The notes beneath the pieces were generated by a model. That model searched no databases. It had not been told where the DNA came from and saw only the letters and a program-made list of their open reading frames with translations. Shown here in pieces: positions 42,247-60,658 of a DNA stretch of 64,000 bases. A program made the translations under genes and the position numbers. Positions within the stretch are counted from its first letter, which is position 1. The number at the start of each line of letters is the position of its first letter. Source of the DNA: Hymenobacter siberiensis (GTDB lineage Bacteria; Bacteroidota; Bacteroidia; Cytophagales; Hymenobacteraceae); the NCBI RefSeq assembly GCF_018967865.2, contig NZ_JAHLZY020000001.1:1240001-1304000 (forward strand), read 5' to 3'.

Positions 42247-42317
42247 TTCCTGCGTTTGGGGGCATTAGTAACTGATGTTACGCAGTCGTCGGGGCGGATA
42301 AATCGTTTAAGCTGCTC

Positions 42318-42449
42318 ATGCTGACTTGCACGCTGGACCTGTACACGGATTATTTACTGAGTTCGACGGGTCCGACCACGGCCACGGGCTTGTCGCGGCT
42401 GCTGGACGGGGCGTTGAGCCACGACCATGTCACGCGCTGGCTGAGCCAG
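42318..42449 (+). pseudogene. IS701-like transposase, N-terminal 44 codons
   Basis: ATG 42318 opens MLTCTLDLYTDYLLSSTGPT followed by TATGLSRLLDGALSHDHVTR, the N-terminal domain of IS701-like transposases. It ends at RWLSQ exactly where the IS3 copy A terminus begins. The rest of the protein starts at 59674. Confidence 0.85.
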
Positions 42450-43687
42450 TGTACTACTCCCCAAAAACTGGACAGTTTAGCGGGGTTTGTTAAGTAATAT
42501 TGTTATGATTGAATGTTGTGTTGGTTTGGTAGACGTGGGCGGGCGTTTGGCCCCCGAGACTTTGATGGGGTCGGCGATGATTGTAGTAGGCAAAGTACGC
42601 GGTTAATTGCTGGTGCAGGTGCTGGCCGTCATCGGCCGGGATAAGATAGATATGTTCCCATTTGACCGTGCGCCAGAGGCGTTTGATGAAGGCATTGTCG
42701 GTGGCGCGGCCGCGGCCGTCGCGGCTGATGCGGCAGCCGGCGTCCAGCAAAGCTTGTTCGTAGGCGAGGCTGGTGAACTGGCTGCCCTGGTCGGAGTTGA
42801 AGATGTAGGGAGCCGGAGCATGGCGCAACGCATCACCCAGGGCTTGCAGGCAAAAGCCCACGTCGAGCGAGTTGGAGAGCTGCCAGCTGAGCACGTAGCG
42901 CGAGTGCCAGTCGAGCACGGCGGCCAGATAGAGAAAGCCCTTGGCCATGGGCACGTACGTGATGTCGGTACTCCATACCTCCTTCGGGGCGGTGGCCGGG
43001 CGGTCCCGCAGTAGGTACGGTTAGGGCGTAACGCCTTGACCAGGAATGGACAAGCGCGGTTTGGGGTAAATCGGCTCGTGGCCCATCAGGCGCACGAGGC
43101 GGCGCACGCGCTTGGCATTGACGGCGTGGCCGGCCAGGCGCAGGTGGTCGCGCAGGCCGAGCACTCCGTTGAAGTTGTGGTCGGTAAACTCCTCATTGAG
43201 CAGGCGCATGAGCTCCAGGTTGTAAGCACTTTCTCCGCAGGGCTGGTAGTAGAAGCTGCTGCGGGCCAGGCCTAGGGCCTGGCAGCGAGCGGCGACCGAG
43301 CTACCGGCCGGGTCCGAGGCCTGAACCAGGACCCGTTGTTGGGCCGAGCTCATCGGGGTAGCGTTTTTTTTAGCAGCGCGTTTTCCATTTGCAACCGACC
43401 GATGGCCGCGTAGGAGGGGCTCGACGTCGGGTAAGGGCGTACCGGCCGCAGGCGCTTCGGTGAAAACCTGGGTGGCCTGCTCACGCAGTTGCAGCTTCCA
43501 ACGGGTGATTTGAGCGGTAGCCAATTGGGAGTGAGCGGCCAGCTCGGCCAATGGCTGGCGCTCGGTGAGGGCGGCTAGCGCCACCTCCGCTTTGAACTCG
43601 GCCGTATAGCGACGGCGGGTGCGTTTTGGGGTCATAATCGAGCTAAGCTAGCCCGCTTTAAGTGTCCAGCTTTTGGGGAGTACTACA
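42450..43687 (-). mobile_element. IS3-family element, copy A
   Basis: Ends TGTACTACTCCCC (42450) and GGGGAGTACTACA (43687) are near-perfect inverted repeats extending into CTGGACAG. Length 1,238 bp. It cuts an IS701 transposase on the left and an IS630 transposase on the right, with different short sequences at the two ends (CAG and GTT), so no target duplication remains. Confidence 0.9.
42490..43635 (-). pseudogene. IS3 transposase OrfA/OrfB, copy A (inactivated)
   Basis: OrfA starts at 43635 (MTPKRTRRRYTAEFKAEV, HTH domain). A 1-nt insertion relative to copy B near 43408 removes the OrfA stop and fuses it to the OrfB frame (MSSAQQRVLVQ at 43353). OrfB is then interrupted by TAA (43021-43023) where copy B predicts Tyr. 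The rve domain continues to 42490, with FNSDQGSQFTS (second Asp) and DNAFIKRLWR, where Lys replaces the catalytic Glu. Two independent lesions make it inactive. Confidence 0.85.
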
Positions 43688-44367
43688 GTTGTAGGCCAAC
43701 AGGACGTTGCAAACGCCTTTGCGCAGGTATTCCTGGTGTTCTTTGGCGGTGGCGTTGGGTTTGGGTGGTATCGGGGTTAGCACCTGGTCGAGCAGTTGGC
43801 AGGGGCGCTCATCGAAGCACAGGCGCACCACGCCCGCTTCGGCCGGTTGCTGGTACACGTCGAGCACGTCCTCCATGTTGGCTAGGTATTCGCCCGTGAT
43901 GGTGCCAATGCACCACATTTGTTTCAGCCAGGGTTTGAGTTTGCTTTTTTTAAAACTTGTCGAATCGATTCATTCGAAATCTTGTCAATGCAGTCGAGCG
44001 AAATCAGATTTTCGTTAAGCAGGGACAAGGTCCAACGGGCCGCGCCAGTCGGTAACTCACTGCAAGCCAAGCTTGTAATACGGGCCTCCAGGGTGGCCGT
44101 CACCTTTCGGGGCTGCCCGCTGCGGGGGCGCTCTTCCAGCGCCCTGTCCAGTCCTTCGGTCATGTAACGCCGCTTGATACGGTGATACTGGCTGTCGGAA
44201 ATGCCCGCGCTGGTTTGCACCTGCGCCGCACTTTGTCCCTCCCCCATCAACAGCAGCGCCCGCGCCCGGGTGATTTTGCGGCTCTTGTGAGTGCCTTTTT
44301 TGACGATAGCCCGCAGTCGAGATACGTCAGAGGCAGGTAAACAAACCGGTTTTGCGAGGCGAGCCAT
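43688..44367 (-). pseudogene. IS630-family transposase, truncated by IS3 copy A
   Basis: ATG at 44367 begins MARLAKPVCLPASD. The helix-turn-helix part (RSGQPRKVTATLEARITSLA) ends at a stop near 43924; the DDE part continues in another frame (WCIGTITGEYLANMEDVLDV, CFDERPCQLL), as in IS630 elements that use a frameshift. The frame is then cut at 43688 by the IS3 end, so the C-terminal DDE glutamate is lost. Non-functional. Confidence 0.8.
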
Positions 44368-44526
44368 CAGGGGAGCGTAAAATGAAAAATAACTAACAAT
44401 TGGCATCGCAATTAAGTTGGTAGAGCACTAGACCAATTCACTGCCCGGACTTGAGATGGTTATTTTAGCAAGTAATCGCCAGCTTCAGCAACTTCGCCAA
44501 TGCGACAGGGTTGCCATGCGGCTTCG

Positions 44527-46311
44527 CTACTGCATCACCGTAGCAGGAGTCTTCGGCTGCCGCTCCACTAACAGGTACGTAAACCATTCCTGCTTCGCAG
44601 CACGAATAACCGTAATTTTGTACTTTTTATTATTTAACAGCCTGGTTTCTACCCATTGCGGACAATCCAGGTAAGTATCCCACAAGTCGAAAGTTTGCAA
44701 GCCAGAATACAGCGGCTGGCACTTGTGTAAATAATTGGGCCGGTCCAGCACTAAGAAGCGGTCGTAGCGCGCCAAAAACTCGTCGTTGGTAAGGATATTG
44801 TTGCCAAACCGCTCCGGGAAGTTGCGCCGCCAGGCCTGCATGTGCTTAAACTCTTGTGGCGGAAATGTGCCACTGTACTTATTCAACGCCGATTCCCAGT
44901 CAAGTATGTAAAAATACTTGTTTCTTTCAGGTGAATAGAAATTTCGCTCGAGCAATTGCCCAGAAAGCGGCATTACTCTTGGTAAATCTCTATACGGCTG
45001 CATCTCAACTGCTTTCAAGTCATAAAATCCCGGCGACCCTCCCCCCCGATAATGAATTCCCCAGATAATCGGCTGGTAGAGGACAAACCCGAAGAAAGCC
45101 ACTATTGCCAACATACTCGTTAAGCTGACTAGCACTTTCCGCTCACCCAGTCGACCCACAACTGTGGCCACTATTGGCAACCCGGAAATAGGGCGAGCCA
45201 CCCCCATTGTTATAAGCACTATCCAACCCAGTGCAGTTGGAATCATATAGCGCGGATAAAATATGGGCTTAATGGTGAGCGAAATTATCCATACTGCCGT
45301 AGGGACTGCAATAAAAGCCAAGGCGAATAACAATAAATGTATTTCGCCAGCTAGTAATTTGATGCTCTCTTTACGCCTGTTCCAGATAATATATGCTGCC
45401 ACAACAACGGTCAATCCCAAAACCAGAAACCTGGAAAAAAAGCTGGGAGCTGTGACATTGTAGATGTCGAGTAAATCTCTGAAATCAGGCGCGGGTATCC
45501 AAGTGCGCGGTTTGCCGGCATCGGCCTGAATGAGAAAAGTCGGGATGTAAAATATGATGGTCGCCAATCCTCCAATCACCGAAAGATAGAGCTTGGGCCG
45601 ATAAAGGTGTCGCAACCTGTCGGCCAGAATAAAACAGCAAAGCATAGCGCCGCTGTAAAAAAATCCATATAGATGGGTGTGCGCAATAGCCGCGTGGGCG
45701 CATACATTCAGCCAGAAATCGCCTGTTGAGATGCGCGTTTTTTGGTAGGCTTGGTCGTACAGTTGGAAGGCGAGGGCAAGTGTTAAGATAAATAGGCCAT
45801 ACATCCGCGCTTCACCGTTCTGGGTAAGAATGATGGTTGATGTGCAAAACACCAGCAGCACCCCAATACTGGCCGGCCACTGGCCGTAGCTTCGCCGCAG
45901 GGTCGCCCAGGAAATGAGTAAGGCGGCACAAAAGCTAATAGAGGTAAAAATCCGTAGCGAAAGCTCTGCTGAGCCAAATAACTTGTCCCAAACCCAGCCT
46001 AGCAGGAAATAAAGAATAGGAGTATTATTTAATTTGTCTTGAAAGGCCGTCAGTAGTTTGCCAAAGCTTGGCTCCGACGTCATATAATATGAAAATAGTT
46101 CGTCATTCCAGTAATACTTTTTGGCTGATACTATCATGCAACTGGCCAGTAAAGCAATTGCCGCCAGCATTGGCACTAGGTAGCTCCATTTAGAAAAACG
46201 CTTTTTATTAGCCAGTTGTATATCGGGGGGGGTATGGTTGAAGTAACGCAGCATATCGTATATACTATCAGGCAAAAAGCAATTTTGGTGACTTTGAAGT
46301 AGTTGATGCAC
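44527..46311 (-). CDS. Polytopic glycosyltransferase, GT39-like
   Basis: 594 residues with about eleven hydrophobic spans. The first external loop carries YYWNDELFSYYMTSEP (acidic pair expected of GT-C catalysts) and a downstream NTPILYFLLGWVWDK. The C-terminal 200 residues form a soluble external domain. Such enzymes add a sugar from a polyprenyl-phosphate donor to a glycan or protein. It is the last of four minus-strand genes in the cargo. GC content is lower than in the core genome. Substrate unknown. Confidence 0.78.
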   Translation of the reverse strand: MHQLLQSHQNCFLPDSIYDMLRYFNHTPPDIQLANKKRFSKWSYLVPMLAAIALLASCMIVSAKKYYWNDELFSYYMTSEPSFGKLLTAFQDKLNNTPILYFLLGWVWDKLFGSAELSLRIFTSISFCAALLISWATLRRSYGQWPASIGVLLVFCTSTIILTQNGEARMYGLFILTLALAFQLYDQAYQKTRISTGDFWLNVCAHAAIAHTHLYGFFYSGAMLCCFILADRLRHLYRPKLYLSVIGGLATIIFYIPTFLIQADAGKPRTWIPAPDFRDLLDIYNVTAPSFFSRFLVLGLTVVVAAYIIWNRRKESIKLLAGEIHLLLFALAFIAVPTAVWIISLTIKPIFYPRYMIPTALGWIVLITMGVARPISGLPIVATVVGRLGERKVLVSLTSMLAIVAFFGFVLYQPIIWGIHYRGGGSPGFYDLKAVEMQPYRDLPRVMPLSGQLLERNFYSPERNKYFYILDWESALNKYSGTFPPQEFKHMQAWRRNFPERFGNNILTNDEFLARYDRFLVLDRPNYLHKCQPLYSGLQTFDLWDTYLDCPQWVETRLLNNKKYKITVIRAAKQEWFTYLLVERQPKTPATVMQ

Positions 46312-46355
46312 CCTTGACTAGGCAGCACTAGATTAGTGGCAACTATTATCTACAC

Positions 46356-46487
46356 GGGTATAATTCAAAACTACGCGTTGCCCTTTTCATGAGTCATCGG
46401 CCCTTGCCTCTGGGCTACACTAAGGGCATCAGACACCAGTCCGAACTTCTGCTTGGCGGTGGCAGCACGTAGTTTTGAATTACACCC
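46356..46487. mobile_element. 132-bp MITE, copy 1
   Basis: Terminal inverted repeats GGGTATAATTCAAAACTACG and CGTAGTTTTGAATTACACCC. Flanked by TATCTACAC and CATCTGCAC (7 of 9 identical), an aged 9-bp target duplication. No coding capacity. Its right end supplies the stop codon of the 46480-48063 gene. Confidence 0.85.
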
Positions 46488-48063
46488 CATCTGCACTCAA
46501 CTGAGGGAATGGCTTTGGCTTCGGCGAACCAAATATTTTCTGCACCCACAGCCTTCGCAGTACCTGCCAGTAACCACCTCCTACTTTAGCTAGCTTAAAC
46601 GAGGAAACCCCCATATCGGCGGTGCGGTTAATCCAGGAAATAGGTACCTCCTTTACGCTGTAATTCATCAAAATCGGGAGTAGGCCTGTTTCGGCGTTAA
46701 TAGAGAAACCTGGTTGCGTTAACAGCACATTTTGAATTACCGTCCGACGAACAAGCTTAAGGTTATTGGTGACATCCCGGAAGCGAGTATTGAGCAGCAT
46801 GCGGGCAATGAGATGGAAAGCACGGTTAGCTACAATCTTTTGAAATGGGTAATTAACCAGCACGCTATAGCGCGAAAACCGACTACCAATCACCATATCA
46901 AATCCCTCGGCCGCCGCATCGAAAATATCCCGTAGCTCCGGCAATAAGTGCTGAAAATCGCAATCCATTGACAGGATATACTCCCCAGTTGCTTCTCGGT
47001 AGCCATCCATCAGTGCCCGACCTACGCCATTAGGTGGCGAACGCCTGACGGGTCTCACGACCGAATATTCTTCGTACAAGCGACTGATTACCTGCCATGT
47101 ATGGTCGGTGCTGTTGTCATCGACTAGCACAATTTCCTTAATATAGTCGCTGTAGAGCGCCAGCAACTGGCTGACCAAGGGTGGGAGATTCATTTCCTCG
47201 TTGTGACAAGGTACGACCACCGAGATGGCCCCATATAATGAGCGGTGGTCCGCCAAGGAGGTAGCAGATGTAACCGTGGCATGAGCACCTTTCCGGGCGT
47301 GCACGAGCAGGGAACCGGACATGGTTTGCACGTAGGGCATGTTTTCAAGCAGGACCGACGCATTACGCAACAACCAATAGCCGTAGCTTGTCAGTGGGGC
47401 ATAAGTAAAATCATGATAAGCTACCATGAGGCTTTCAAAGCCCGCATTAGTAACTAGTGTTTCGAGGGCCAATTTGTTGTGCAACTGACGAGTATCGGGT
47501 CGAGCAGTCATTTTCGACAATAGTTGATTAATTCGAAACAATGGGTTGCTGGGGTTGCTCTCGTAAAGCAGCAGTTGTCCACCAGGTTTTAGCAGAGCGT
47601 AGGCAAAATCTAATAGGCCAGAGCTATCCGAAGCATCGACTAAGTCCATGGCGACGATGAAATCGAATTCTTGCGTTGCCAGTTGGGCAGCACTTTCCGC
47701 GAACGAAACAAAATTTATCGCCGCATTTGCTTTCCTCGATGGTATTTCCTCCGAAAAGCTCACAGCGGTAATAGGATTCTCTCCCCGTGAAACTCTGGCC
47801 AGTGCTTCCGTAAAAAGTCCTTGCCCACTTCCCAACTCCAGAATGCTCTGATTGGGTAATAGATGCATTAGATGGCGAAAAGTTTGGGCACGCCACACCA
47901 TTCTATCTTGATAGATGGGGTCTTTTTTCAACCAATAATTATCTCGTAATGCTTCTCGCTTTTGCAGTACCTCGGTTCCATGCAGTTGGGTCATAACGCT
48001 GAATTTAAGGAAAACGCTTCGCGCTTTGGTAGTAACAGGGGGAATGCAAAGCATCTTTTGCAA
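46480..48063 (-). CDS. Methyltransferase-GT2 glycosyltransferase fusion
   Basis: 527 residues in two domains. Residues 40-260: class I SAM methyltransferase (SILELGSGQGLFTEALA motif I, LLDFAYALLKPGGQLLLY). Residues 280-505: GT2 of the dolichol-phosphate-mannose-synthase type, with VVVPCHNEEMNLPPLV, VDDNSTDHTW, DxD in SMDCDFQHLLPE and MVIGSRFSRYS. No membrane segment. It could make a lipid-linked or methylated sugar donor for the GT39-like gene 168 bp downstream. The last residues (DGV and stop) come from the MITE at 46356-46487, so the natural C-terminus may differ. ATG 48063 or a later Met (MTQLHGTEVL) may be used. Confidence 0.85.
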   Translation of the reverse strand: MQKMLCIPPVTTKARSVFLKFSVMTQLHGTEVLQKREALRDNYWLKKDPIYQDRMVWRAQTFRHLMHLLPNQSILELGSGQGLFTEALARVSRGENPITAVSFSEEIPSRKANAAINFVSFAESAAQLATQEFDFIVAMDLVDASDSSGLLDFAYALLKPGGQLLLYESNPSNPLFRINQLLSKMTARPDTRQLHNKLALETLVTNAGFESLMVAYHDFTYAPLTSYGYWLLRNASVLLENMPYVQTMSGSLLVHARKGAHATVTSATSLADHRSLYGAISVVVPCHNEEMNLPPLVSQLLALYSDYIKEIVLVDDNSTDHTWQVISRLYEEYSVVRPVRRSPPNGVGRALMDGYREATGEYILSMDCDFQHLLPELRDIFDAAAEGFDMVIGSRFSRYSVLVNYPFQKIVANRAFHLIARMLLNTRFRDVTNNLKLVRRTVIQNVLLTQPGFSINAETGLLPILMNYSVKEVPISWINRTADMGVSSFKLAKVGGGYWQVLRRLWVQKIFGSPKPKPFPQLSADGV

Positions 48064-48086
48064 TACATACGCATTCAGTTAGGTAC

Positions 48087-48218: not shown

Positions 48219-48219
48219 G

Positions 48220-49275
48220 TTAGGCACTTATAGCACGGTAGTTATGAACTATCTGTCTAATAGTTTCATCTAAAGAAATGCTGATATCCCAAGTGGGGTA
48301 ATGGGTACGCATCTTCTCAAGGTTTGAGATGTAGCAAATATGGTCGCCTACTCTGTTCGTATCCTGGTAGTTGAATACCTGCGGTATGCCAGTATGCTTT
48401 TCGACCATAGTAAATGCCTCCAAAATAGAGCAGGAATTTGCGCGGCCACCGCCAATATTGTAGACCTGCCCTGAACGCGGTTTCTCAATGAATGCATCGA
48501 TGAAGCGAGCGACATCATAAGCGTGAATATTGTCGCGTACTTGCTTGCCTTTGTATCCAAATACGGTGTATTCCCGGCTATGCAGATTGCACTGTACCAG
48601 ATAACTGAGAAAGCCATGCAATTCGACGCCGGCATGGTTGGGACCAGTTAGGCACCCCCCGCGCAAACAGCAGGTCGGCATACCAAAATACTTCCCATAC
48701 TCCTGCACCATCACATCGGCAGCCACTTTCGAGGAACCAAACAGTGAATGAACCGATTGGTCGATTGAAAAATCTTCCCCAATACCATTGCGAAATGCCT
48801 TGTCAGCGTATTCCCACCGGGTAGCTTGTTCAACCAACGGAATAGTATTTGGCCGGTCTCCATAAACCTTGTTGGTGGACATGTGCACAAAGGGCACATC
48901 CGTGCTGACGCGCCGCGCCGCTTCCAGTAGATTTAGCGTACCAACGGCATTCGTATCAAAGTCCTCGAACGGAATTGCGGCGGCCCGGTCATGAGATGGT
49001 TGCGCGGCCGTGTGCACAATAGCCGCCGGTTTCACGGCCTGCAACAGTTCTAACACGCCTTGACGGTCGCGAATATCCAGTTCGTGGTGCTGAAAGGAAC
49101 CGCCCAGCCTTGTTGACAACCGATGCTGATGGGCCCGAGTATCTCCCTGCGGCCCAAAAAACACGGCTCGCTGGTTATTATCAACGCCGTGCACCAACCA
49201 GCCTTTGGCCGCGAAATATGAAACGACTTCGGAGCCAATTAGGCCCGAAGAACCGGTTACCAGTATGTTTTTCAT
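48220..49275 (-). CDS. NAD-dependent sugar epimerase (CDP-paratose 2-epimerase-like SDR)
   Basis: 351 residues. Extended [18 protein letters not shown] at residues 7-21 binds NAD. The stretches [58 protein letters not shown] and [17 protein letters not shown] mark the CDP-paratose 2-epimerase-like branch. The catalytic YxxxK reads FGSSK, with Phe for Tyr, as in this branch. It makes or remodels a nucleotide sugar for the neighbouring transferases. The stop codon lies within a MITE target duplication. Product sugar unknown. Confidence 0.82.
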
Positions 49276-50228: not shown

Positions 50229-51209
50229 AGACTTGTTGCGAAGTGAGTGAAGTGCGGAATTTTCGACAAACTGTACTTAAATTTAGAACATGAACTTTTC
50301 CGTAAAAAACCTCACTACTTCGCGTAAATGGCGTGCTGCCACGGGACTCACGGCGGAGCGTTTTGCGCAGCTTTTGGCGCATTTTAAGCAGGCGTATTTT
50401 CGGTTGAATGGAACAAATATGATTGAACGTGGGGCTTTTGCGCCGTATGAAGTAGCCCTTAAAACAGAAGAAGAATTACTGCTTTTCACCCTATTCAGCT
50501 TCAAAGCAAACTTGACGTATGATTTGTTGGGATTGGTCAGTGGGATGGACGGTTCCAACGCGAAACGCAACCAGGAATTAGGCATTACGGTGCTCCAAGA
50601 AGCGCTGGAGCAAACCGGGCATGCGCCAAAGCGGGAATTTACGACAGTGGCCGAATTTGAAGCCTATTTTCAGGAACACGAGACGTTATTGGTCGATGGA
50701 ACGGAGCAACGCAAGCAACGACCAGGAAATAAAGAGATGCAAAAAGACTACTATAGCGGTAAAAAAAAATGCACGCCGTAAAAGAGATAGTTATTTCAAC
50801 GACCATCCGCTGGATTGGTTTTATCAGCCGTTGTTACGGCGGAAGACACCACGACTACAGTGTGCTAAAAAGCGTTTTACCAGTTGATAAAGAGTGGTTT
50901 AAAAAGTTCAAGGTGCGGTTGGACCTGGGGTTTTTGGGCTTCGCGAAAGACTACGTTTGCCGGAAATTTTTTATTCCTATCAAAAAGCCGAAAGGGAAAG
51001 AACTCACCGATGAACAACGAGAAATAAATACAAAACAAGCAAGTGAACGAATTACCGTAGAGCATAGCATTGGCGGATTGAAACGTTATCGAATTTTGGA
51101 AGACCGATTACGTTTGCATAATTTGAACCTGTACAATGACGTGCTGGGAGTGTGTGCGGGCTTGTGGAATTTCAGCTTAAATCTGTGATTAATAGCTCGC
51201 AACAAGTCT
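50229..51209 (+). mobile_element. IS5-superfamily (ISL2-like) element (inner)
   Basis: Ends AGACTTGTTGCG (50229-50240) and CGCAACAAGTCT (51198-51209) are perfect inverted repeats. AAT flanks both sides (50226-50228, 51210-51212), a likely 3-bp duplication. Inserted between the outer IS transposase stop and its right end. Confidence 0.8.
50290..51188 (+). CDS. ISL2-like transposase with -1 frameshift site
   Basis: ATG 50290 opens MNFSVKNLTTSRKWRAATGL, an HTH domain, then DLLGLVSGMDGSNAKRNQ and the first acidic motif TLLVDGTEQRKQRPG. The first frame stops near 50781. An A9 run (50761-50769) permits a -1 slip, giving YYSGKKKMHAVKEIVIS and the DDE_Tnp_4 part: HDYSVLKSVLP, LDLGFLGFAK and ERITVEHSIGGLKRYRI with the final Glu. 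Both parts are otherwise intact, so the element may be active. Confidence 0.78.
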
Positions 51210-51310: not shown

Positions 51311-52693
51311 TTAGCGCGTGCCGACCAAAGTCGGTGGAACCGTCCGGACCCAGAATGGAATATTAGCTGTTGCGACGCTACCATGGCCGTCAAACACCCG
51401 CACATATAGTCGGTAAGGCCCTGGTAATTGAGGAGCTTTAATCAGAGCGCCAAAACCATACCCGCTTATAACGGCGTTTTCAACGGACTCAGGTGGAGTA
51501 GCTATAATCTTGGCATCGAACGTTTTTTCCACTTCGGGAAGTAGTTCCCAGTGTACGGTCAACGAATCGCCTTCCGGGTCTGACGCCTCAACTATCGAAG
51601 GTAATAACTGCCCGACCGTTGCTTCAATACTCGCGCTCGCCCGTCGCCCCGCCAATTGCAAATCCGTTATCAGAGGAGCCCGGTTAGTAGGATACTGCCC
51701 TCTCCACAGATAGTTCATCTCATCAACCAAGGCCGTTTTTTCGCCAGTAGGCTCAAATAAGCTGAACCAAGTGGAAGTATATTCAAACTTAGAACCCCAG
51801 AAAAAAAGGTAGCTACCTAAACACTTATTGCTATCAGGCTCGATTACCTGCCGGTAGAGGCTACTGACAAAAACGGCTTTTGCCGTACTAGTCTTTTCCA
51901 GTTGTGCCCCCCATTTTGTCTCGGCTTCTTCCCAATAGCCCGCGTTACCATATTCAGAAATGATGTAGGGGCCAAGCCAGCCACTGTTCCGCAACAGGGT
52001 GGGTAATATCCGAAGCTTTCCATATATATTAAATGACAAAATATCGACTTCTGGAGCCAGGTGATGTAACTCGGCGGCTCGGCTGTCCAAGTCTCCTAGG
52101 GTTGTCGTGACTGGATGATAGGGGTCTAGTTCATGAATCATGTGAGCAATGCGGCCGAGCGCGCTAAAAAGCCGTGGCCCTCTAGCAGAAATGTCTACTT
52201 CGTTTCCCACGTTCCACATCAGCAGAGCGGGGTGATGACGGTAACGTAACACCTGCTGGCGAATGCGCCCGAGTTGCGCTTCTACCATGGCAGGGTCATA
52301 ATATGTAAAGTGGGAAGTCTCTGGTTCCATCCACAATCCAAGCATTACACTGAGGCCCGCCTGATGCGCCTCGTCCATGAACGGTTCCGCAAAATCGGAG
52401 CTCCAGAGCCGTAGGGTATTGCCACCGGCCTCGCGCAGACGGTCGATTTGCTGAACGCCCGCCCCACCCCTCAAATAGTATGGCTTTCCGCCACGTACTA
52501 GGCGAAACCCGCCCTGGGTTGGTTCTACCTTGGTAGGAATAACACCTTGTAAGCGGGTGGTGGATGGCGTAAGCCAGGTTGTATTTTCGGGGGACTTCGT
52601 ATTGCATCCTTCTGCTGATAGTATAACAAGCAATAGAAAGGTCACCCATCCTCTTTTGAGAATTTTCACTTGTTTTTTTTGACCTGTATCCAT
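51311..52693 (-). CDS. Glycosidase-like lipoprotein (clan GH-A TIM barrel)
   Basis: 460 residues. The lipobox LSAEGC after a hydrophobic segment makes it a lipoprotein. GGKPYYLRGGAGVQQIDRLR and GGNTLRLWSSDFAEPFMDEA start a TIM barrel like GH2/GH5; the proposed acid/base is Glu in MLWNVGNEVDISARG and the nucleophile Glu in YIISEYGNAGYW. A beta-sandwich follows (TDLQLAGRRASASIEATVGQ). It may trim or release the polysaccharide made by the divergent GT2 synthase. Family level is uncertain. First gene of the minus-strand cluster. Confidence 0.72.
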   Translation of the reverse strand: MDTGQKKQVKILKRGWVTFLLLVILSAEGCNTKSPENTTWLTPSTTRLQGVIPTKVEPTQGGFRLVRGGKPYYLRGGAGVQQIDRLREAGGNTLRLWSSDFAEPFMDEAHQAGLSVMLGLWMEPETSHFTYYDPAMVEAQLGRIRQQVLRYRHHPALLMWNVGNEVDISARGPRLFSALGRIAHMIHELDPYHPVTTTLGDLDSRAAELHHLAPEVDILSFNIYGKLRILPTLLRNSGWLGPYIISEYGNAGYWEEAETKWGAQLEKTSTAKAVFVSSLYRQVIEPDSNKCLGSYLFFWGSKFEYTSTWFSLFEPTGEKTALVDEMNYLWRGQYPTNRAPLITDLQLAGRRASASIEATVGQLLPSIVEASDPEGDSLTVHWELLPEVEKTFDAKIIATPPESVENAVISGYGFGALIKAPQLPGPYRLYVRVFDGHGSVATANIPFWVRTVPPTLVGTR

Positions 52694-53148
52694 TTAATCT
52701 CTGCTCAATGCATTTTCATAAAACATGCTTTTTCCTTTAAATCAGTCCAAGCAAAGACAATCAAACTATATCCCAACTCCAGCACCAAGCCAGATTTAAT
52801 CAGTAATTTTTAACACCGTAGCCAACAGTTTTTACTGTATTATATAAATATAAAATATTTATTATATAAACATTGCCGCTCCTTTCTAAACAGAAATATT
52901 AGTGAATATTGCACAATTATTTGTACTTTCAATTTAAACATTTAATTCTAATGCCATTTTAAAACGCACAGAATTCTATGCAACATTGCAAACATTATCA
53001 ATGCGGGTAATTAAATATATAATTAGCCGCTTTTGCATATAGCTACGAAAACATTATTTAAAATAATGAGCCTCATTCCAAATAATGTTTTATTAAGTTC
53101 TCATTAACAATATTTTCACACAATCTATTGTATCGCTTGCATTTTAGA
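52694..53148. other. AT-rich divergent promoter region
   Basis: 455 bp between the glycosidase-like gene and the GT2 synthase, far richer in A+T than anything else in the window, with runs such as TATTATATAAATATAAA. No coding frame or repeat was found. It probably holds promoters for both genes and perhaps a binding site for a silencing or regulatory protein. Confidence 0.55.
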
Positions 53149-55545
53149 ATGTCGACTGGAGTCAGGACCATGAGGTGGCTGGTGGGCATCGGCATTATTA
53201 GCCTGATATATTTCGGGTGGTGGTTCTTCGCCAACCTACGGATTGGATTTCCCTTGTTGTTTTGGCCATTGGCATTGTCCATTGGCTTCAAACTGCTGTT
53301 GGTGCTGCACGAGTGGGCACACTATGTACAGGTGCGGGTGCCGGTTCCGCCTGCTTACACCCCGCCGGTACGGCGAGTAGATGTGATGACAACTGCTTTC
53401 CCAGGTGAGCCCCTCGACATGATTATTCACACATTGGAAGCGATGCAGGCCATTCGATATCCGCACACCAGCTACCTCTGCGATGAAGGTGATGACCCGG
53501 TACTGCGCGCGGCATGCTTGCGCCTGGGTATTATCCATGTCACGAGGCTAGTTAAAACGGATGCTAAAGCAGGCAACATTAACCATGCCCTGCAACAGGC
53601 CACAGGCGAGGTGTGCGTGGTGCTAGACCCAGACCATGCGCCTACGACCGATTTTCTGGACCAAGTAATGCCCTATTTCGAAGACGAACGTATTGGGTTT
53701 GTACAGGTAGTACAGGCATACAGCAACCAAGCCGAAAGTCTGGTGGCTCGCGCGGCGGCTGAGCAGACCTACCACTTTTATGGTCCTCTGATGATGGGGA
53801 TGAATGGCTATGGCACCGTGCAAGCCATAGGCGCTAACTGCACCTTTCGGCGTGCGGCGCTTGATTCGATTGGCGGGCACGCCGTCGGACTCACCGAAGA
53901 TATGCATACAGCTATGTGCTTGCATGCGGCGGGCTGGCGTTCGGTTTATGTCCCCGAAATTGTGAGCCGGGGCTTGGTACCAGCTTCGCTGGCTGCCTTC
54001 TATTCGCAGCAGCTTAAGTGGTCACGAGGGGCTTTTGATTTACTGTTTCGGGTGTACCCGAAGCTGTTTACGCGTTTTACTTGGTCCCAGCGTATTCATT
54101 ATTTAGTGCTGCCGCTCTATTTCTTCTCGGGCGTAATTGCCCTCCTAGACCTAAGTATTCCGTTGGTATCACTCGGAATCAGCCAGTTTCCGTGGCTGGT
54201 ATCACTCAATGCGCTAATCCGGCATGCATTTCCGCTGCTGGGTATGGCGTTACTTATCCGCTTTTACGCACAACGATGGATGCGCGAGCCCGGCGAAGGG
54301 GGCCTGCACTTAGCAGGTGGCTTTTTGCTAGTGGGCACTTGGTGGGTGTACACGCTAGGTTTCCTGTACGCGGTGCTGGGAATACAGGTGCCCTACCTGC
54401 CCACCCCCAAAGTAGGCCGCAAATACAACGAATGGGCACTGGCACTACCTAACATCTTATTTGCGTTGCTCCTGCTCGCGGCTTGTGTACATAGCCAACT
54501 GGTAGATGCCACCGGCTATGCCACCAGCCAATATATTATCACAATGATGGTGGTATCAGTAGCAAGCGCCGGGGTTTTACTGGCTGCTACGGTGATGGGG
54601 TTGCACCGAACAGTATTTCACTTTATGCGGGAACTGGCCAAGCTTCCCTTTCGGGGTATGGCTATGGGGCTGCACCGCTTACAAAATAAATTAGGGAGGT
54701 TGCTGGCAGGCAGCGTGAGTATGTATAGCTTACTGATAGCCCTGATTGGCGTATCCTCTGTATTTTTTTTCACCTATCGTCAACAGCAATGGCTATTGCA
54801 GGTCCCTCCTGAGTGGCTCCTAAATGGCGGCGGCAATGAAACGCATATAGGACGGGAAGCCACGCCAACTGTTGATTCCGATACCGAAGCTTCAACCAAA
54901 TGGAAAATCGGGCTCCCTTTTAACTCATTCCAAACCTCGACCATCAATGCTCTTACACTACCTGCTATCGACCCAGCTACCCGATTGCCCCTACAGGTGT
55001 ATAAGCTGGCCAGCAAGCATCAAATTATGATGATTACGTGGACGGTGAGTGCCCAGGAACTGCAAAACGCTAATTACTGGCCGCAGCTCGTTCGTCAACT
55101 AATGGTCGTTCCGGGGCCGTTGCTGTTGCGGCCGCTACTGCAATCGCCGTCACCCGACCGCTATCGTCGGGACTGGGCGCTCATGGCCAGCACCTTTCGA
55201 GCTGCCAAAGTACCAAATGTACTTTGGGTTTGGACGCCGGAAGCTGCGGACCCGTTGCTGAAAAAATTTCCCGGCGTGGCGAATGTGAACTGGATGGCTA
55301 CACCGCTGGTCGCAGATACCCTCTCAATTAGTTTTGCGGAGCTGCGCCGACACTTGGTTTCAAATTTGGTCAACCAAGTTCCCGTGTTATTGCTGGCTCC
55401 CCCTGCCACCGGTAAGCTTAGTACGATAGCAAACCGTATTGCTTGGCAATACCCCGAAATCAAGATAGTAGTGTTTGCGGCGCCAAAACCGTCAATATCT
55501 ACTTCTCCAATAACGCTTAACTCCACGAATCGCTCCTTCAACTGA
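53149..55545 (+). CDS. Cellulose-synthase-like GT2 synthase fused to a degenerate GH26-like domain
   Basis: 798 residues (ATG 53149; ATG 53170 possible). Two N-terminal spans, then a processive GT2 domain with DEGDDP, DxD in LDPDHAPTT, LTEDMHTAM and QQLKWSRGAF in place of QxxRW. A bundle of spans (about 310-540) follows, like BcsA or NdvB-type synthases. After a final span near 560, an extracytoplasmic domain (about 610-790) has PGPLLLRPLLQSPS and NVLWVWTPEA, resembling the GH26 barrel; there Gln stands where the acid Glu of RPxxE is expected. The domain may bind rather than cut the polymer. Divergent from a glycosidase-like lipoprotein. Confidence 0.78.
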   Translation: MSTGVRTMRWLVGIGIISLIYFGWWFFANLRIGFPLLFWPLALSIGFKLLLVLHEWAHYVQVRVPVPPAYTPPVRRVDVMTTAFPGEPLDMIIHTLEAMQAIRYPHTSYLCDEGDDPVLRAACLRLGIIHVTRLVKTDAKAGNINHALQQATGEVCVVLDPDHAPTTDFLDQVMPYFEDERIGFVQVVQAYSNQAESLVARAAAEQTYHFYGPLMMGMNGYGTVQAIGANCTFRRAALDSIGGHAVGLTEDMHTAMCLHAAGWRSVYVPEIVSRGLVPASLAAFYSQQLKWSRGAFDLLFRVYPKLFTRFTWSQRIHYLVLPLYFFSGVIALLDLSIPLVSLGISQFPWLVSLNALIRHAFPLLGMALLIRFYAQRWMREPGEGGLHLAGGFLLVGTWWVYTLGFLYAVLGIQVPYLPTPKVGRKYNEWALALPNILFALLLLAACVHSQLVDATGYATSQYIITMMVVSVASAGVLLAATVMGLHRTVFHFMRELAKLPFRGMAMGLHRLQNKLGRLLAGSVSMYSLLIALIGVSSVFFFTYRQQQWLLQVPPEWLLNGGGNETHIGREATPTVDSDTEASTKWKIGLPFNSFQTSTINALTLPAIDPATRLPLQVYKLASKHQIMMITWTVSAQELQNANYWPQLVRQLMVVPGPLLLRPLLQSPSPDRYRRDWALMASTFRAAKVPNVLWVWTPEAADPLLKKFPGVANVNWMATPLVADTLSISFAELRRHLVSNLVNQVPVLLLAPPATGKLSTIANRIAWQYPEIKIVVFAAPKPSISTSPITLNSTNRSFN

Positions 55546-55603
55546 ACAGAGCGCGTTTACGGCAGTACCGTTTTACTTTTTAAGCACGCTAGTTAAAGCT
55601 ATG

Positions 55604-56179
55604 CCCTTTAGGGCAAGACTTTAGTTGCTACTCACTTCCAGGCGTCGGGTACCTTTGTGAGATGAAGCAGCGAACAGGCAGCCATTCGGTTCACAAGCTG
55701 GAAGTGCATCTGGTGTGGAGCACAAAATATCGCTACCAGGTGCTGACGGGGGATGTGCAACTGCGCTGCCGGGACTTGCTGCGTCAGACGTGTAACACGC
55801 TGGATGTGGGCATCTTGAAAGGGGTAGTGAGCAAAGACCATATCCATTTGCACGTCTCGTATCCGCCCGCCTTGGCTGTGATCGAATTAATGCGTCGCTT
55901 GAAGGGACGCAGCGCCAAGTTGCTCTTGCAAGAGTTTCCCGAGTTGAAGCGGCGGTATTGGGGCGGTCATTTCTGGGGCATTGGCTACGGGGCCTGGAGT
56001 GTCGGTAACATCACAGACGAGCTACTCGAAGCGTATTTGAATCATCACAAGGACCAGCCCAATGGGGACGAGAATTTCATTCTGGAATAGCCCACTTACA
56101 GTGGTTGTCTTTCAGTCGGCTTGAGCCGAAACCCGCGAATTTCATTCGCAATCCAAACCTATGGACTTACAGTCCATAG
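55604..56179 (+). mobile_element. IS200/IS605-type element with hairpin ends
   Basis: The Y1 transposase gene is flanked by hairpins: TGCCCTTTAGGGCA near 55608 on the left and CTATGGACTTACAGTCCATAG (56159-56179, first 20 nt shown by rule as CTATGGACTTACAGTCCATA) on the right, plus small hairpins GTCGGCTTGAGCCGA and GCGAATTTCATTCGC between. Exact boundaries were not determined; such elements leave no target duplication. Confidence 0.6.
55662..56090 (+). CDS. tnpA: IS200-type Y1 transposase
   Basis: 142 residues. Rolling-circle-like HUH endonuclease: VHKLEVHLVWSTKYRYQVL opens the fold, HIHLHVSYPP holds the metal-binding HUH, and the catalytic Tyr is expected in FWGIGYGAWSVGN. Length and motifs are complete, so it may be active. 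It has no accompanying tnpB. Located between the GT2 synthase and the acyltransferase in the cargo. Confidence 0.9.
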   Translation: MKQRTGSHSVHKLEVHLVWSTKYRYQVLTGDVQLRCRDLLRQTCNTLDVGILKGVVSKDHIHLHVSYPPALAVIELMRRLKGRSAKLLLQEFPELKRRYWGGHFWGIGYGAWSVGNITDELLEAYLNHHKDQPNGDENFILE

Positions 56180-56339
56180 TCGTTTAGTGAACACGGAGGC
56201 TTTCACTTTCCGCAGGTTGCTAGTTTGCTCAGGGTACGGCCCTGAAATTCAATAGGCGTTTAGGTGTCAGTCACTTCCATTAATCTTGCACTGCCCAAAG
56301 CCTTCCTGTTGCTTTGCTCATCTGCCCTTACTGCCCTGC

Positions 56340-57461
56340 ATGGCCCCTTCTGTCTCCTCCACCCCCCAGCGTTACTATGAAATTGACTTGTTGCGCTTCC
56401 TGGCCGCCCTTGCGGTGGCGTTGTACCACTTGGCCTACAACGGGTTCCACTCTCATTCAACGCTTGTCGATTACCCATGGCTCGGCAAAATTTTCCGGTA
56501 TGGCTACTTGGGCGTTCAGCTTTTTTTTCTCATCAGCGGGTACGTTATCCTCCAGTCGGTGTACGGCAAGACATTGGGTCAATTTTTTGTGGCGCGAGTA
56601 GCAAGATTATACCCTGCCTTCTGGGCGGCATGCGCCCTATTCTTTGCAGTGGTCCGCCTATTTGGGCCCGTCGCGGGGGAAGTCGGCTGGTCGGCCGAGT
56701 GGGCGGCGGACGCGCGGTGGTCGGTATTCTTATGCAACCTGACAATGCTGCATGAGTTTTTGGGCGTTCACAATCTGGACGGCGTGTGCTGGACCCTGAC
56801 ATATGAACTCATGTTCTACTTCTTAGTGGCGCTGCTCGTGGCCTTCCAGTGGCTAAATCACCTGCCGCTCGTGCTGAGCGTGTGGTCGGCTTACTGCGGG
56901 TTGATAAACCTAGGGCTGATAGTAAACGCGGGGCCCTTTGCTTCTTTCTTTTTTCCCAGCTATGCCCCCTTTTTCATCGGCGGCATGATGCTGTCGTTGA
57001 TTCAGCGCCGACAGGACGAGTCTTGGAAACTCTACTCGTTGCTGTTCGTGGCGTACGTTTTAGGACTGCTCCCGGTGCTGCACTACACGGCAGGATTGCA
57101 GTTCCACTACGGCCAACCGTTTCACCCTTCCGTGGTGGTGGCAGTAGTCACGTTCTTCTTTGGGGCAATGCTGCTCATTGTCCACCGCAAAGTTAACCTA
57201 GGGTACGCTCCTGGGTTCGCCTGGTTCGGGGCGCTTTCCTACCCCCTGTATTTGTTTCACCAAAAAATGGGGTACGTGGTGCTACAACGCTTCGGCGGCA
57301 CTGTGGACAAGCACTGGTTGCTCGCCACCTTTTTTGTGGGCGTGGGGTTGCTTGCGCTGTTCGTGCACGTGCTCATAGAACGGCCCGGCAGTCGGTTTCT
57401 GCGTCACGCACTGGCGCGCTTGGTGGCTACGGCCCCACGAGGTCAGGGCACGCCAGGTTGA
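56340..57461 (+). CDS. Membrane acyltransferase, acyltransferase-3 family
   Basis: 373 residues with ten hydrophobic segments. RYYEIDLLRFLAALAVALYH at the N-terminus carries the family Arg/His residues, and GYLGVQLFFLISGYVI is a hallmark. LAVALVR-type loops and the C-terminal SYPLYLFHQKMGYVVL follow. It adds acetyl or other acyl groups to surface glycans, probably the product of this cluster. ATG 56340 is chosen; an upstream TTG (56286) adds only unconserved residues. Confidence 0.88.
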   Translation: MAPSVSSTPQRYYEIDLLRFLAALAVALYHLAYNGFHSHSTLVDYPWLGKIFRYGYLGVQLFFLISGYVILQSVYGKTLGQFFVARVARLYPAFWAACALFFAVVRLFGPVAGEVGWSAEWAADARWSVFLCNLTMLHEFLGVHNLDGVCWTLTYELMFYFLVALLVAFQWLNHLPLVLSVWSAYCGLINLGLIVNAGPFASFFFPSYAPFFIGGMMLSLIQRRQDESWKLYSLLFVAYVLGLLPVLHYTAGLQFHYGQPFHPSVVVAVVTFFFGAMLLIVHRKVNLGYAPGFAWFGALSYPLYLFHQKMGYVVLQRFGGTVDKHWLLATFFVGVGLLALFVHVLIERPGSRFLRHALARLVATAPRGQGTPG

Positions 57462-57638
57462 CTGGCAGGCAGAGCAATATACCGTAGGACCTAAATCAAG
57501 TACTCGTTTTGCTGATTGGAACACGTCTGAACTACCACCCTTTGGCTGAACCGAAGATGCACCGTCGCACACCTGTTGGCATCCGGTTGGCGGAGCGGTC
57601 CGGGGGCGGGGCGGGGATTTTTCCCGCTAGTTTAGGGT

Positions 57639-58268: not shown

Positions 58269-58308
58269 TGTACTACTCCCCAAAAACTGGACAGTTTAGC
58301 GGGGTTTG

Positions 58309-59340
58309 TTAAGTAATATTGTTATGATTGAATGTTGTGTTGGTTTGGTAGACGTGGGCGGGCGTTTGGCCCCCGAGACTTTGATGGGGTCGGCGATGAT
58401 TGTAGTAGGCAAAGTACGCGGTTAATTGCTGGTGCAGGTGCTGGCCGTCATCGGCCGGGATAAGATAGATATGTTCCCATTTGACCGTGCGCCAGAGGCG
58501 TTTGATGAAGGCATTGTCGGTGGCGCGGCCGCGGCCGTCGCGGCTGATGCGGCAGCCGGCGTCCAGCAAAGCTTGTTCGTAGGCGAGGCTGGTGAACCGG
58601 CTGCCCTGGTCGGAGTTGAAGATGTAGGGAGCCGGAGCATGGCGCAACGCATCGGCCAGGGCTTGCAGGCAAAAGCCCACGTCGAGCGAGTTGGAGAGCT
58701 GCCAGCTGAGCACGTAGCGCGAGTGCCAGTCGAGCACGGCGGCCAGATAGAGAAAGCCCTTGGCCATGGGCACGTACGTGATGTCGGTACTCCATACCTC
58801 CTTCGGGGCGGTGGCCGGGCGGTCCCGCAGTAGAGTTGTTGCGAAGCAAAAAGCCTTGATAATCAATTAATTATGTCAAAAATAAAAACCGACAAAAATT
58901 GAAAAGAGAACGTCTAAGCCACATTGCCAATAAAATTAGCGCGATTTCATGCCTGTAATAGGCTGATTTTGAGCACAAACATTACGCAACAAGTCTAGTA
59001 GGTACTGGTAGGGCGTAACACCTTGACCAGGAATGGACAAGCGCGGTTTGGGATAAATCGGCTCGTGGCCCATCAGGCGCACGAGGCGGCGCACGCGCTT
59101 GGCATTGACGGCGTGGCCGGCCAGGCGCAGGTGGTCGCGCAGGCCGAGCACTCCTTTGAAGTTGTGGTCGGTAAACTCCTCATCGAGCAGGCGCATGAGC
59201 TCCAGGTTGTAGGCACTTTCTCCGCAGGGCTGGTAGTAGAAGCTGCTGCGGGCCAGGCCTAGGGCCTGGCAGCGAGCGGCGACCGAGCTACCGGCCGGGT
59301 CCGAGGCCTGAACCAGGACCCGTTGTTGGGCCGAGCTCAT
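58309..59340 (-). pseudogene. IS3 OrfB, copy B, interrupted by a MITE
   Basis: OrfB begins at ATG 59340 (MSSAQQRVLVQASDPAG) and runs to about 59002, where the MITE at 58834-58996 breaks it. The rve domain resumes at about 58833 (LLRDRPATAPKEVWSTDITY) and ends at 58309. DNAFIKRLWR again has Lys (58501-58503) instead of the DDE glutamate. Confidence 0.88.
58834..58996. mobile_element. 163-bp MITE in IS3 copy B, related to the ISL2-like element
   Basis: Ends AGTTGTTGCGAAG and CGCAACAAGTCT are imperfect inverted repeats matching those of the element at 50229-51209 (AGACTTGTTGCG). AGTAG flanks both sides (58829-58833 and 58997-59001). Copy A lacks it at the same place, so the insertion is recent. 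No coding sequence. Confidence 0.82.
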
Positions 59341-59621
59341 CGGGGTAGCGTTTTTTTTAGCAGCGCGTTTTCCATTTGCAACCGACCGATGGCCGCGTAG
59401 AGGGGCTCGACGTCGGGTAAGGGCGTGCCGGCCGCAGGCGCTTCGGTGAAAACCTGGGTGGCCTGCTCACGCAGTTGCAGCTTCCAACGGGTGATTTGAG
59501 CGGTAGCCAATTGGGAGTGAGCGGCCAGCTCGGCCAATGGCTGGCGCTCGGTGAGGGCGGCTAGCGCCACCTCCGCTTTGAACTCGGCCGTATAGCGACG
59601 GCGGGTGCGTTTTGGGGTCAT
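59337..59621 (-). CDS. IS3-family OrfA, copy B
   Basis: 94 residues, complete. MTPKRTRRRYTAEFKAEVAL and LAAHSQLATAQITRWKLQLR form the helix-turn-helix, with MENALLKKTLPR at the end. Its stop overlaps the OrfB start (ATGA at 59337-59340), and an A8 run on the minus strand just before it fits -1 programmed frameshifting to make OrfAB. Because OrfB is broken, only the OrfA protein would be made. Confidence 0.88.
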   Translation of the reverse strand: MTPKRTRRRYTAEFKAEVALAALTERQPLAELAAHSQLATAQITRWKLQLREQATQVFTEAPAAGTPLPDVEPLYAAIGRLQMENALLKKTLPR

Positions 59622-59673
59622 AATCGAGCTAAGCTAGCCCGCTTAACCTGTCCAGCTTTTGGGGAGTACTACA

Positions 59674-60622
59674 ACCTACGGCCCGGCCGACATCTGGCGG
59701 CAAGCCAAGCCCCTGATTCGCCAGGCCGAGGCCCGGCGACCGGCCGGCGAGTTCGCCGTGCTCATCGTCGACGATTCGGTGCTGGAAAAGGCGCATGCCG
59801 ATGCCAATGAGTTGATTTGCAGTCATTGGGACCACAGCCAGCAGCGCTACGTCAAGGGTCTGAATTTCGTCACCCTGCTCTATCAGGCCGGCGAGTTGGC
59901 CCTGTCCATCGCCGTCGAACTCGTGCGCAAACCCGTGCCCGTCTACCATCCCAAGACCCAGCAGACCAGCTACCAGAGCCCGTTCACCAAAAACGAGTAC
60001 CTGCAGCAGATGCTGCGCGTGGCGCAGCCGCAGGTGGCCTACCGCTACCTGCTGGCCGATTCCTGGTACGCCTCGGCCGAGAACATGTGTCTGGTGCGGG
60101 CCTTGGGCCATCATTTCGTTTTTGCCCTCGAAAGCAGCCGCACCGTCGCCCTGAGCGAAGCCGACCGTGCGCAAGGTCGGTTCCAGGCCGTGCAGACGCT
60201 GGTGTTTCCCGATACGCAACCCCTGCGCGTCTATTTGCGGTCCGTGCAAGAGGCGGTGCTCGTAACCAGGCAAGTCTTTACAAACCAAGACGGTAGCCAG
60301 GGTACATTGTATGTGGTCAGCAGCGATACCGACCTGGACCAAGCCCAACTGACCACGATTTACCAGGGACGGTGGAAAAGCGCATCAAGCTTTTTGTGTG
60401 GAAGAGTATCACAAGTCGCTCAAACAGAATGCCTCGATGGGCAAGGCGCCCACCAAAACCCTGGCCACGCAGGCCACCCATTTCTTCGCTGCCGTGCTGG
60501 CCTACACCAAACTCGAAGTCCTCAAGCTCAAATGCGGCATCGGCCATTTTCGCCTTAAAGCACAGCTCTATACCGTCGGTCTCAAAGCCATGTACCAGCA
60601 ACTCGCCCTACTCCGTGCGTAA
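59674..60622 (+). pseudogene. IS701-like transposase, C-terminal part, frameshifted
   Basis: Starts TYGPADIWRQAKPLIRQAE, in frame with the 44-codon piece ending at 42449. The DDE core follows: VLIVDDSVLEKAHADANELI (first Asp), SHWDHSQQRYVKGLNFV and YRYLLADSWYASAENM. Near 60377-60395 an extra 19 nt shifts the frame; the true end (EEYHKSLKQNASMGKAPTKT, then FRLKAQLYTVGLKAMYQQLA) continues in another frame to TAA at 60620-60622. So even without the composite block the transposase would be inactive. Confidence 0.87.
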
Positions 60623-60658
60623 CATCAGGTAGTAATCTGTCCGAAATGATTAGTGGTA

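What the first reader, a model, noticed from the sequence alone, without database searches (positions are those of the whole stretch)
42266..60634. 18.4-kb island: glycan cargo between two IS3 copies, inside an IS701-like element
Perfect 13-bp inverted ends and TAGTA flanks define an outer IS701-like element. Its transposase is cut after codon 44 and resumes in frame at 59674, joining AGC CAG to ACC TAC. The intervening block is bounded by direct copies of one IS3 element. This shows step-wise capture of a surface-glycan cluster next to fabI.
Basis: partly seen in the sequence, partly recalled or inferred. Interest (0 to 1): 0.75.

Follow-up and report, generated by a model that had tools for sequence, protein, structure and literature searches.

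The report
Nested jumping-gene island beside fabI
An 18-kb block of sugar-polymer genes, framed by two copies of one jumping gene and nested inside a broken second jumping gene, has replaced a decayed pectin-enzyme locus in one strain of an environmental bacterium; this is an ordinary kind of genome rearrangement, resolved here in some detail.

Summary
The anatomy is real. The genus is Hymenobacter. The outer element's perfect 13-bp ends lie at 42272-42284 and 60616-60628, its transposase is split (44 codons, then 59674 onward), and two direct IS3 copies (42450-43687, 58269-59673) bound the cargo. A same-species strain lacks the island; no other of 119 genus genomes showed it as a block.

Other copies of the outer element make 7-bp duplications; here the flanks match 6 of 7, and in the same-species strain they mark the edges of a 1,235-bp native segment (pectinesterase remnants) missing here. 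So this is a replacement, not a clean insertion. Neither IS3 copy has its 3-bp duplication, alone or as a pair; the joined transposase would be 3 bp short of all ten copies compared. The right IS3 copy holds a 164-bp insert and has an identical sister elsewhere with a perfect duplication. Recombination between IS3 copies fits better than composite transposition. The cargo is two glycan blocks not found side by side elsewhere.

Side result: the outer transposase has a 19-nt frame-breaking segment beside the catalytic-glutamate codon, gained or lost repeatedly among close copies; cause open.

The parts
41369..42202 (+). fabI, enoyl-ACP reductase, left neighbour
   Evidence: Pfam PF13561, 211 bits; matches in 120 of 120 genus genomes, in G090 only a weak one
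42265..42271 (.). left flanking 7-mer; native, followed by other DNA in the same-species strain G072
42272..42284 (.). left 13-bp terminal inverted repeat of the outer IS701-like element
42318..42449 (+). outer transposase, 5' part (44 codons)
   Evidence: 88% identical to the second own copy L053
42450..43687 (-). IS3 copy A; flanking trinucleotides do not match
43688..44431 (-). IS630-family fragment cut by IS3 copy A
   Evidence: NCBIfam NF033545, 58.7 bits, below its cut-off of 100; 97% copy elsewhere in the genome, where the element continues past the cut point
44527..46311 (-). PMT-type sugar transferase (glycan block 1)
   Evidence: Pfam PMT_2, 29.8 bits, cut-off 26.1
46356..46487 (.). 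MITE-like palindromic repeat 1; carries the stop codon of the gene 46480-48063
46480..48063 (-). methyltransferase fused to GT2 glycosyltransferase (glycan block 1)
   Evidence: Pfam PF00535 and PF13489
48087..48220 (.). MITE-like palindromic repeat 2
48220..49275 (-). NAD-dependent sugar epimerase/dehydratase (glycan block 1)
   Evidence: Pfam PF01370, 149.5 bits
49439..50200 (+). transposase of DDE_Tnp_1 type, in two overlapping frames; right bound approximate
   Evidence: Pfam PF01609 and PF13586 on 49504-50193
50290..51188 (+). transposase of DDE_Tnp_4 type, split in two frames
   Evidence: Pfam PF13359 on the 3' frame only
51311..52693 (-). glycoside-hydrolase-2-type protein, lipoprotein-like N-terminus by eye (glycan block 2)
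   Evidence: Pfam PF02836, 38.2 bits; divergent pair with the GT2 gene kept in relatives
53128..55545 (+). cellulose-synthase-like GT2, 805 aa (glycan block 2)
   Evidence: Pfam PF13641; TIGR03030 155.6 bits, below its cut-off of 699
55568..56188 (+). IS200 element (ORF 55662-56090)
   Evidence: NCBIfam NF033573, 131.7 bits, cut-off 55; 100% copy at G000:C1:1315931-1316551
56286..57461 (+). acyltransferase-3 family protein
   Evidence: Pfam PF01757, 99.8 bits
57639..58268 (+). AhpC/TSA-like gene fragment cut by IS3 copy B
   Evidence: Pfam PF00578, 24.5 bits, below its cut-off of 26
58269..59673 (-). IS3 copy B; identical over 1,405 bp to the copy at G000:C1:996221-997625
58834..58997 (.). 164-bp MITE-like insert inside IS3 copy B
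59674..60624 (+). outer transposase, 3' part, frame broken at 60379
   Evidence: 89% identical to the second own copy
60379..60397 (+). 19-nt segment in front of the catalytic-glutamate motif; present in some copies of the element and absent in others
60616..60628 (.). right 13-bp terminal inverted repeat
60629..60635 (.). right flanking 7-mer, 6 of 7 like the left one; one base off the G072 sequence
60878..61852 (-). D-2-hydroxyacid dehydrogenase, right neighbour
   Evidence: Pfam PF02826, 124.4 bits; near fabI in 37 of 119 other genus genomes (pairs picked by eye)

Best explanation
A nested, now probably inert island made in several steps. (1) An IS701-like element landed at a preferred TTAGTAA-type target just after fabI, where a decaying pectinesterase locus lay (inferred). 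(2) IS3 copies entered that element (shown: they interrupt it). (3) The cargo, flanked by IS3 copies that had truncated an IS630 element on one side and an AhpC/TSA-like gene on the other, was joined in by recombination between IS3 copies, or IS3 insertions were followed by adjacent deletions (inferred from mismatching flanks). (4) About 1.2 kb of native DNA between the outer element's present ends was lost before, during or after (shown: loss; inferred: order). The cargo is two separate glycan blocks, one probably for lipid-linked sugar transfer and one for an exopolysaccharide, which would alter the cell surface if expressed (inferred from domains).
For: Island absent in same-species G072: the fabI flank aligns up to the element's left end, the dehydrogenase flank resumes at its right end, 1,235 bp of other DNA between. 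That DNA is ancestral: its pectinesterase part matches 7 of 12 fabI-dehydrogenase loci of other species, and another part matches an eighth, G025; G009 has two whole pectinesterases there. IS3 flanks: A CAG/GTT, B GCG/ACC, no pair matching, although this IS3 makes 3-bp duplications elsewhere (own L004 and B'; 9 of 20 complete copies among the fetched loci). Junction 3 bp short of 10 of 10 copies. B identical to B', which has a perfect duplication. Block 1 is syntenic in G032, block 2 is kept in eight named loci; the listed matches show the two side by side in no other genome. The five glycan-block genes are 47-53% GC against 59-65% in the flanks.
Against: No present-day IS3 copy carries the partner flanks that recombination would have left, so the event cannot be traced (by eye). 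About half of the IS3 copies lack a duplication, so its absence is weak evidence for any one mechanism. The 6-of-7 flanks also fit one insertion whose duplication later mutated, with the 1.2-kb loss as a separate deletion between AGTAA repeats. Not all cargo is low in GC: the acyltransferase is 56% and the AhpC/TSA-like fragment 70%. Import of the finished island by homologous recombination in the flanks was not tested.
Confidence: 0.6

Rival explanations
1. Composite transposon: the two IS3 copies moved the cargo as one unit into an IS701-like element that had inserted cleanly at TAGTA.
For: Direct IS3 copies at both ends and an outer element split at exactly the IS3 ends.
Against: No 3-bp duplication at the outer IS3 ends; the joined element is 3 bp short of 10 of 10 copies instead of 3 bp longer. 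Outer flanks are 6 of 7, not identical, and native DNA is missing. The two IS3 copies differ by 14 substitutions and a 164-bp insert.
Confidence: 0.15
2. The finished island was imported whole from another Hymenobacter strain by homologous recombination in the fabI and dehydrogenase flanks, so that it replaced the local pectinesterase remnant.
For: Explains replacement rather than insertion; the flanks continue at 97.5% (2,403 bp) and 97.9% (194 bp) identity to the same-species strain.
Against: No donor: none of the 119 other genomes showed the block in the listed matches (two candidates scored per genome), and the replacement ends fall exactly on the outer element's ends, which homologous recombination would not require.
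Confidence: 0.15
3. Concerning the outer step alone (compatible with the best explanation for the rest): a single clean insertion of the outer element with a duplication that later took one substitution; the 1.2-kb native segment was lost earlier or later by deletion between AGTAA repeats.
For: TTAGTAA is a used target elsewhere: L176 in G077 and L216 in G025 have it on both sides. Other copies score either 7 of 7 (7 sites) or 5 of 7 and less (9 copies), so 6 of 7 looks like a decayed duplication.
Against: Needs a deletion whose end falls exactly at the element's edge. It does not explain the IS3 junctions.
Confidence: 0.35

Closest known systems
IS-flanked composite transposons and their decayed or single-ended forms (ISApl1-mcr-1 type, PMC5821093, search listing only)
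   Same: Cargo between two direct copies of one IS.
   Different: No target duplication at the outer IS ends; copies not identical; transposition as a unit not supported.
IS-associated deletions and IS-IS recombination that leave copies without duplications (Ngan et al. 2024, PMC11708052, abstract and section list seen)
   Same: Absent duplications and a deletion that ends at an IS; [quoted passage not shown]
   Different: Here two IS families are nested and 14.6 kb of cargo lies between the IS3 copies.
IS701 and IS4 families ('IS4 family goes genomic', PMC2266710, passages read)
   Same: Transposase of an insert-free copy matches NCBIfam NF049921, IS701 family, above its cut-off; CT-type ends as in some IS4 subgroups.
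   Different: About 1.08-1.15 kb against 1.40-1.55 kb; 7-bp instead of 4-bp duplications; full Y-(2)-R-(3)-E-(6)-K signature, which that paper gives to IS4 and not to IS701.
Recoded IS transposases, e.g. the Roseiflexus IS630 with hairpin-dependent transcription slippage (review PMC5009743, passages read)
   Same: A frame break inside a transposase whose both parts look conserved, next to a T5 run.
   Different: No significant RNA structure, the break falls inside the catalytic motif, and insert-free copies coexist, so recoding is not shown.

Membership tests
IS701 family (outer element) | transposase profile | tested here: met
   The insert-free G077 copy L176 scores 306.3 bits against NF049921 (cut-off 250), but only 76.7 against NF033540 (cut-off 150); the island's own 3' part hits DDE_5 at 35.7 bits, cut-off 27
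IS701 family (outer element) | 4-bp target duplication (PMC2266710) | tested here: not met
   7-bp identical flanks at 7 sites
IS701 family (outer element) | 1,400-1,550 bp and no full YREK motif | tested here: not met
   1,083-1,151 bp in copies with both ends recognised; L176 reads Y-2-R-3-E-6-K
IS4 family (outer element) | full YREK motif; duplications of 7-13 bp across subgroups | tested here: met
   but the IS4 profile NF049925 gives 97.9 bits, below its cut-off of 250
IS3 family (inner copies) | IS3 transposase with rve domain | tested here: met
   NF033516 170.2 bits, cut-off 160, on the ORF 58309-58866 of copy B; rve 72.5 bits
IS3 family (inner copies) | 3-bp target duplications (recalled as typical of the family) | tested here: met
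   In 9 of 20 complete copies among the fetched loci and at B'; not at A or B
Composite transposon | matching target duplication outside the two outer IS ends | tested here: not met
   CAG against ACC
Composite transposon | two near-identical IS copies that flank cargo | tested here: met
   98.9% over 1,237 aligned bases, apart from the 164-bp insert
Programmed recoding of the outer transposase | both frames under selection, with conserved recoding site and active product | tested here: inconclusive
   dN/dS 0.10-0.17 in the 5' part and 0.05-0.17 in the 3' part, the near-identical pair L053/L079 left aside, but the segment comes and goes between close copies; product not testable here

The most novel reading that the evidence does not exclude
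In this Hymenobacter IS701-like group a 19-nt segment sits exactly between the conserved R and catalytic E codons of the transposase, breaks the frame, and is gained or lost precisely and repeatedly (at least three changes forced by well-supported branches, six on the best tree) while the sequence on both sides stays under purifying selection. The boldest reading is that it is a switchable or recoded on/off cassette that controls transposase output, by skipping, slippage or programmed exchange between copies, rather than a simple mutation passed round by gene conversion.
Probability: 0.13. Interest if true: 0.7.

Novelty: new member of a known kind. Interest (0 to 1): 0.32.

Why it matters
As an island it is one more case of IS-built replacement of a decaying locus by glycan genes, useful because a same-species island-free genome exists and the events can be ordered in part. 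It shows that short matching motifs at IS ends (TAGTA) can mislead: only the island-free strain and other copies of the element reveal a 7-bp rule and a 1.2-kb loss. The outer element also shows that the IS701/IS4 boundary is blurred, and its 19-nt segment is a concrete, testable oddity.

Tried and rejected
Rejected: composite transposition as sole cause (no matching trinucleotides; 3 bp short); TAGTA as the duplication; an IS3-IS3 exchange between present chromosomal copies (none of the listed flank trinucleotides pair up across A, B, L002 and the 1237-kb copy; compared by eye); the two transposase halves coming from different copies (both are 95.8% identical to L053 in the 120 bp next to the junction, so no mosaic signal). 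The recoding idea looked strong after (low dN/dS, a 38-nt invariant run over the segment), then weakened: insert-free open copies L216 and L218 were found in G025, and L218 is sister to insert-bearing L214 with 29 substitutions and, as the only gap, the 19 nt; the presence of the segment is no more clustered on that tree than under shuffling (282 of 500 shuffles as low). RNA folding was not significant (z -0.64 and -0.68 on the two 45-nt insert-bearing pieces, -1.08 on an insert-free one, +0.43 on 121 nt of the window); a plain +1 shift would also lengthen the R-E spacing of the motif. Plasmid collection: at near sensitivity 2 Hymenobacter records matched 1% of the cargo (in the IS200 stretch), and at distant sensitivity none matched the outer element. 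Paper searches (capped listings) showed no paper on this island; only PMC11708052 (abstract, section list), PMC5009743 and PMC2266710 (passages) were opened.
Full report
Where it is. The window is G000:C1:1240001-1304000 of a 4.83-Mb genome in three contigs. Named relatives of a cargo protein are Hymenobacter in eight of nine loci, the ninth a Bacteroidetes bacterium; G072 is listed as the same species.

Anatomy. The outer element's 13-bp ends are perfect inverted repeats at 42272-42284 and 60616-60628. Its transposase starts at 42318, is cut after 44 codons at 42449 and goes on in the same frame at 59674. Between lie IS3 copy A (42450-43687), 14.6 kb of cargo and IS3 copy B (58269-59673), A and B in direct orientation and 98.9% identical over 1,237 aligned bases. 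Copy B has a 164-bp insert with imperfect terminal repeats and a short direct repeat at its ends, so MITE-like by eye. The cargo begins with an IS630 fragment and ends with an AhpC/TSA-like fragment, each cut by an IS3 end.

Empty site. In G072 the fabI flank matches up to 42271 and the dehydrogenase flank resumes at 60628, with 1,235 bp of other DNA between. That DNA is not peculiar to G072. Of 12 fabI-dehydrogenase loci fetched from other species, seven match its pectinesterase part (L146, L148, L149, L150, L153, L154, L157) and an eighth, G025 (L147), matches its other part over about 640 bp; the remaining four show nothing beyond short repeats. Pfam confirms two pectinesterases in G009, a carboxypeptidase-regulatory-like domain in the G025 gene and a partial pectinesterase in G072. 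So the window has lost native DNA that its sister strain keeps. From the listings I picked by eye the genomes with both genes close on one contig: 37 of 119 other genomes have them 63-3,358 bp apart; here the gap is 18,681 bp.

Outer flanks. Copies of the outer element with both ends recognised have identical 7-bp flanks, all ending in TAA, at seven sites (L053 with its same-site copy L079, L080, L175, L176, L177, L216, L218), while nine others score 5 of 7 or less (L084, L085, L173, L178, L181, L185, L186, L187, L210). The island scores 6 of 7, and both 7-mers lie at the edges of the lost segment in G072 (left identical, right one base different). This fits either a decayed duplication plus a separate deletion, or an IS-linked loss between two target-like sites. 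It does not fit a clean TAGTA duplication.

Inner junctions. This IS3 makes 3-bp duplications: 9 of 20 complete copies among the fetched loci, of which two (L109, L115) could not be judged fairly. In this genome 2 of 6 copies have them, read. A and B have none, and no pairing of their four flanks matches. Ten of ten other copies of the outer element compared, including the open-frame copies L176, L216 and L218, have three more bases at the junction. Copy B is identical over 1,405 bp to a copy at 996 kb with a perfect GGT duplication, so an IS3 with the 164-bp insert has moved or been copied recently. I read this as IS3-IS3 recombination or IS3 insertion with adjacent deletion; an abstract on laboratory evolution gives both as frequent causes of missing duplications (PMC11708052).

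Cargo. Block 1 (44527-49275) is a PMT-type sugar transferase, a methyltransferase-GT2 fusion and a sugar epimerase; G032 has the same order with 49-74% protein identity and two PMT genes. Block 2 (51311-55545) is a GH2-type protein divergent from a cellulose-synthase-like GT2; the pair recurs in eight of nine named loci. In the matches listed for the 119 other genomes (two candidates scored per genome) the blocks are never side by side; in G032 a GT2 relative lies more than 200 kb from block 1. The five genes of the two blocks are 47-53% GC, the flanks 59-65%, the acyltransferase 56% and the AhpC/TSA-like fragment 70%. Functions are inferred from domains; the NCBIfam scores of the glycan proteins are all below cut-off.

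Side result. The island's transposase carries 19 nt at 60379-60397 that some relatives lack; it lies between the R and E of the Y-2-R-3-E-6-K motif and breaks the frame. A pattern search finds it in 10 places in 4 of 204 family genomes. Its peptide shows in 7 of the 120 listed protein matches (of 2,841 found), one of them the window's own and one only 78% identical to the query; 97 of the 120 have the insert-free form (the seventh, P0003, read by eye). Among seven copies with it dN/dS is 0.10-0.17 before and 0.05-0.17 after it, the near-identical pair L053/L079 left aside, against 0.10-0.25 in three insert-free copies, and the longest invariant run among five copies, 38 nt against 20 for the next, covers it. 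But it is not inherited as one clade. A first tree needed three changes, of which well-supported branches force one; with the further G025 copies the tree needs six, of which they force three. L214 and L218, well-supported sisters there, differ by 29 substitutions and exactly this gap. Gene conversion between copies explains this most simply; recoding or switching is possible but unshown.

Family label. NCBIfam calls the insert-free protein IS701 family, but length, duplication size and the full YREK motif do not fit the IS701 definition in PMC2266710, and the last two fit IS4 better. 'IS701-like' is fair; 'IS701 family member' is not secured.

Verdict. Anatomy confirmed, capture history partly right, an ordinary nested island with a better-resolved and messier past than proposed.

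Noticed in passing
60379-60397: 19-nt frame-breaking segment beside the catalytic-glutamate codon of the outer transposase, gained or lost repeatedly among close copies; found in four Hymenobacter genomes.
   Followed up: partly
46356-46487 and 48087-48220: Two direct copies of a roughly 133-bp palindromic MITE-like repeat flank the methyltransferase-GT2 gene; the first supplies its stop codon, and the second has 9-bp flanks alike in 8 of 9 positions by eye. Further copies in G000 and G072.
   Followed up: partly
L056 (G000:C1:996221-997625): IS3 copy with the same 164-bp insert, identical to copy B over 1,405 bp, between perfect GGT duplications: an IS3 with a foreign insert still moves or is copied.
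   Followed up: partly
G000:C1:1237204-1239649, just left of the window: Another copy of the same IS3, split by about 1.2 kb of other DNA, ends about 350 bp before the window starts.
   Followed up: no
60660-60697; also 9503-9598, 31365-31466, 37744-37865: Short repeats dispersed in the window match the DNA between fabI and the dehydrogenase in G072; beside the dehydrogenase only the second arm of a hairpin remains in the window, the first being gone where the island ends.
   Followed up: no
L180 (G010): A 79%-identical IS3 also cuts the 5' end of an outer-type element in G010, at a different place and without a matching trinucleotide.
   Followed up: partly
50290-51188: A second transposase of the cargo (DDE_Tnp_4 type) is split between two frames; not examined further.
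   Followed up: no
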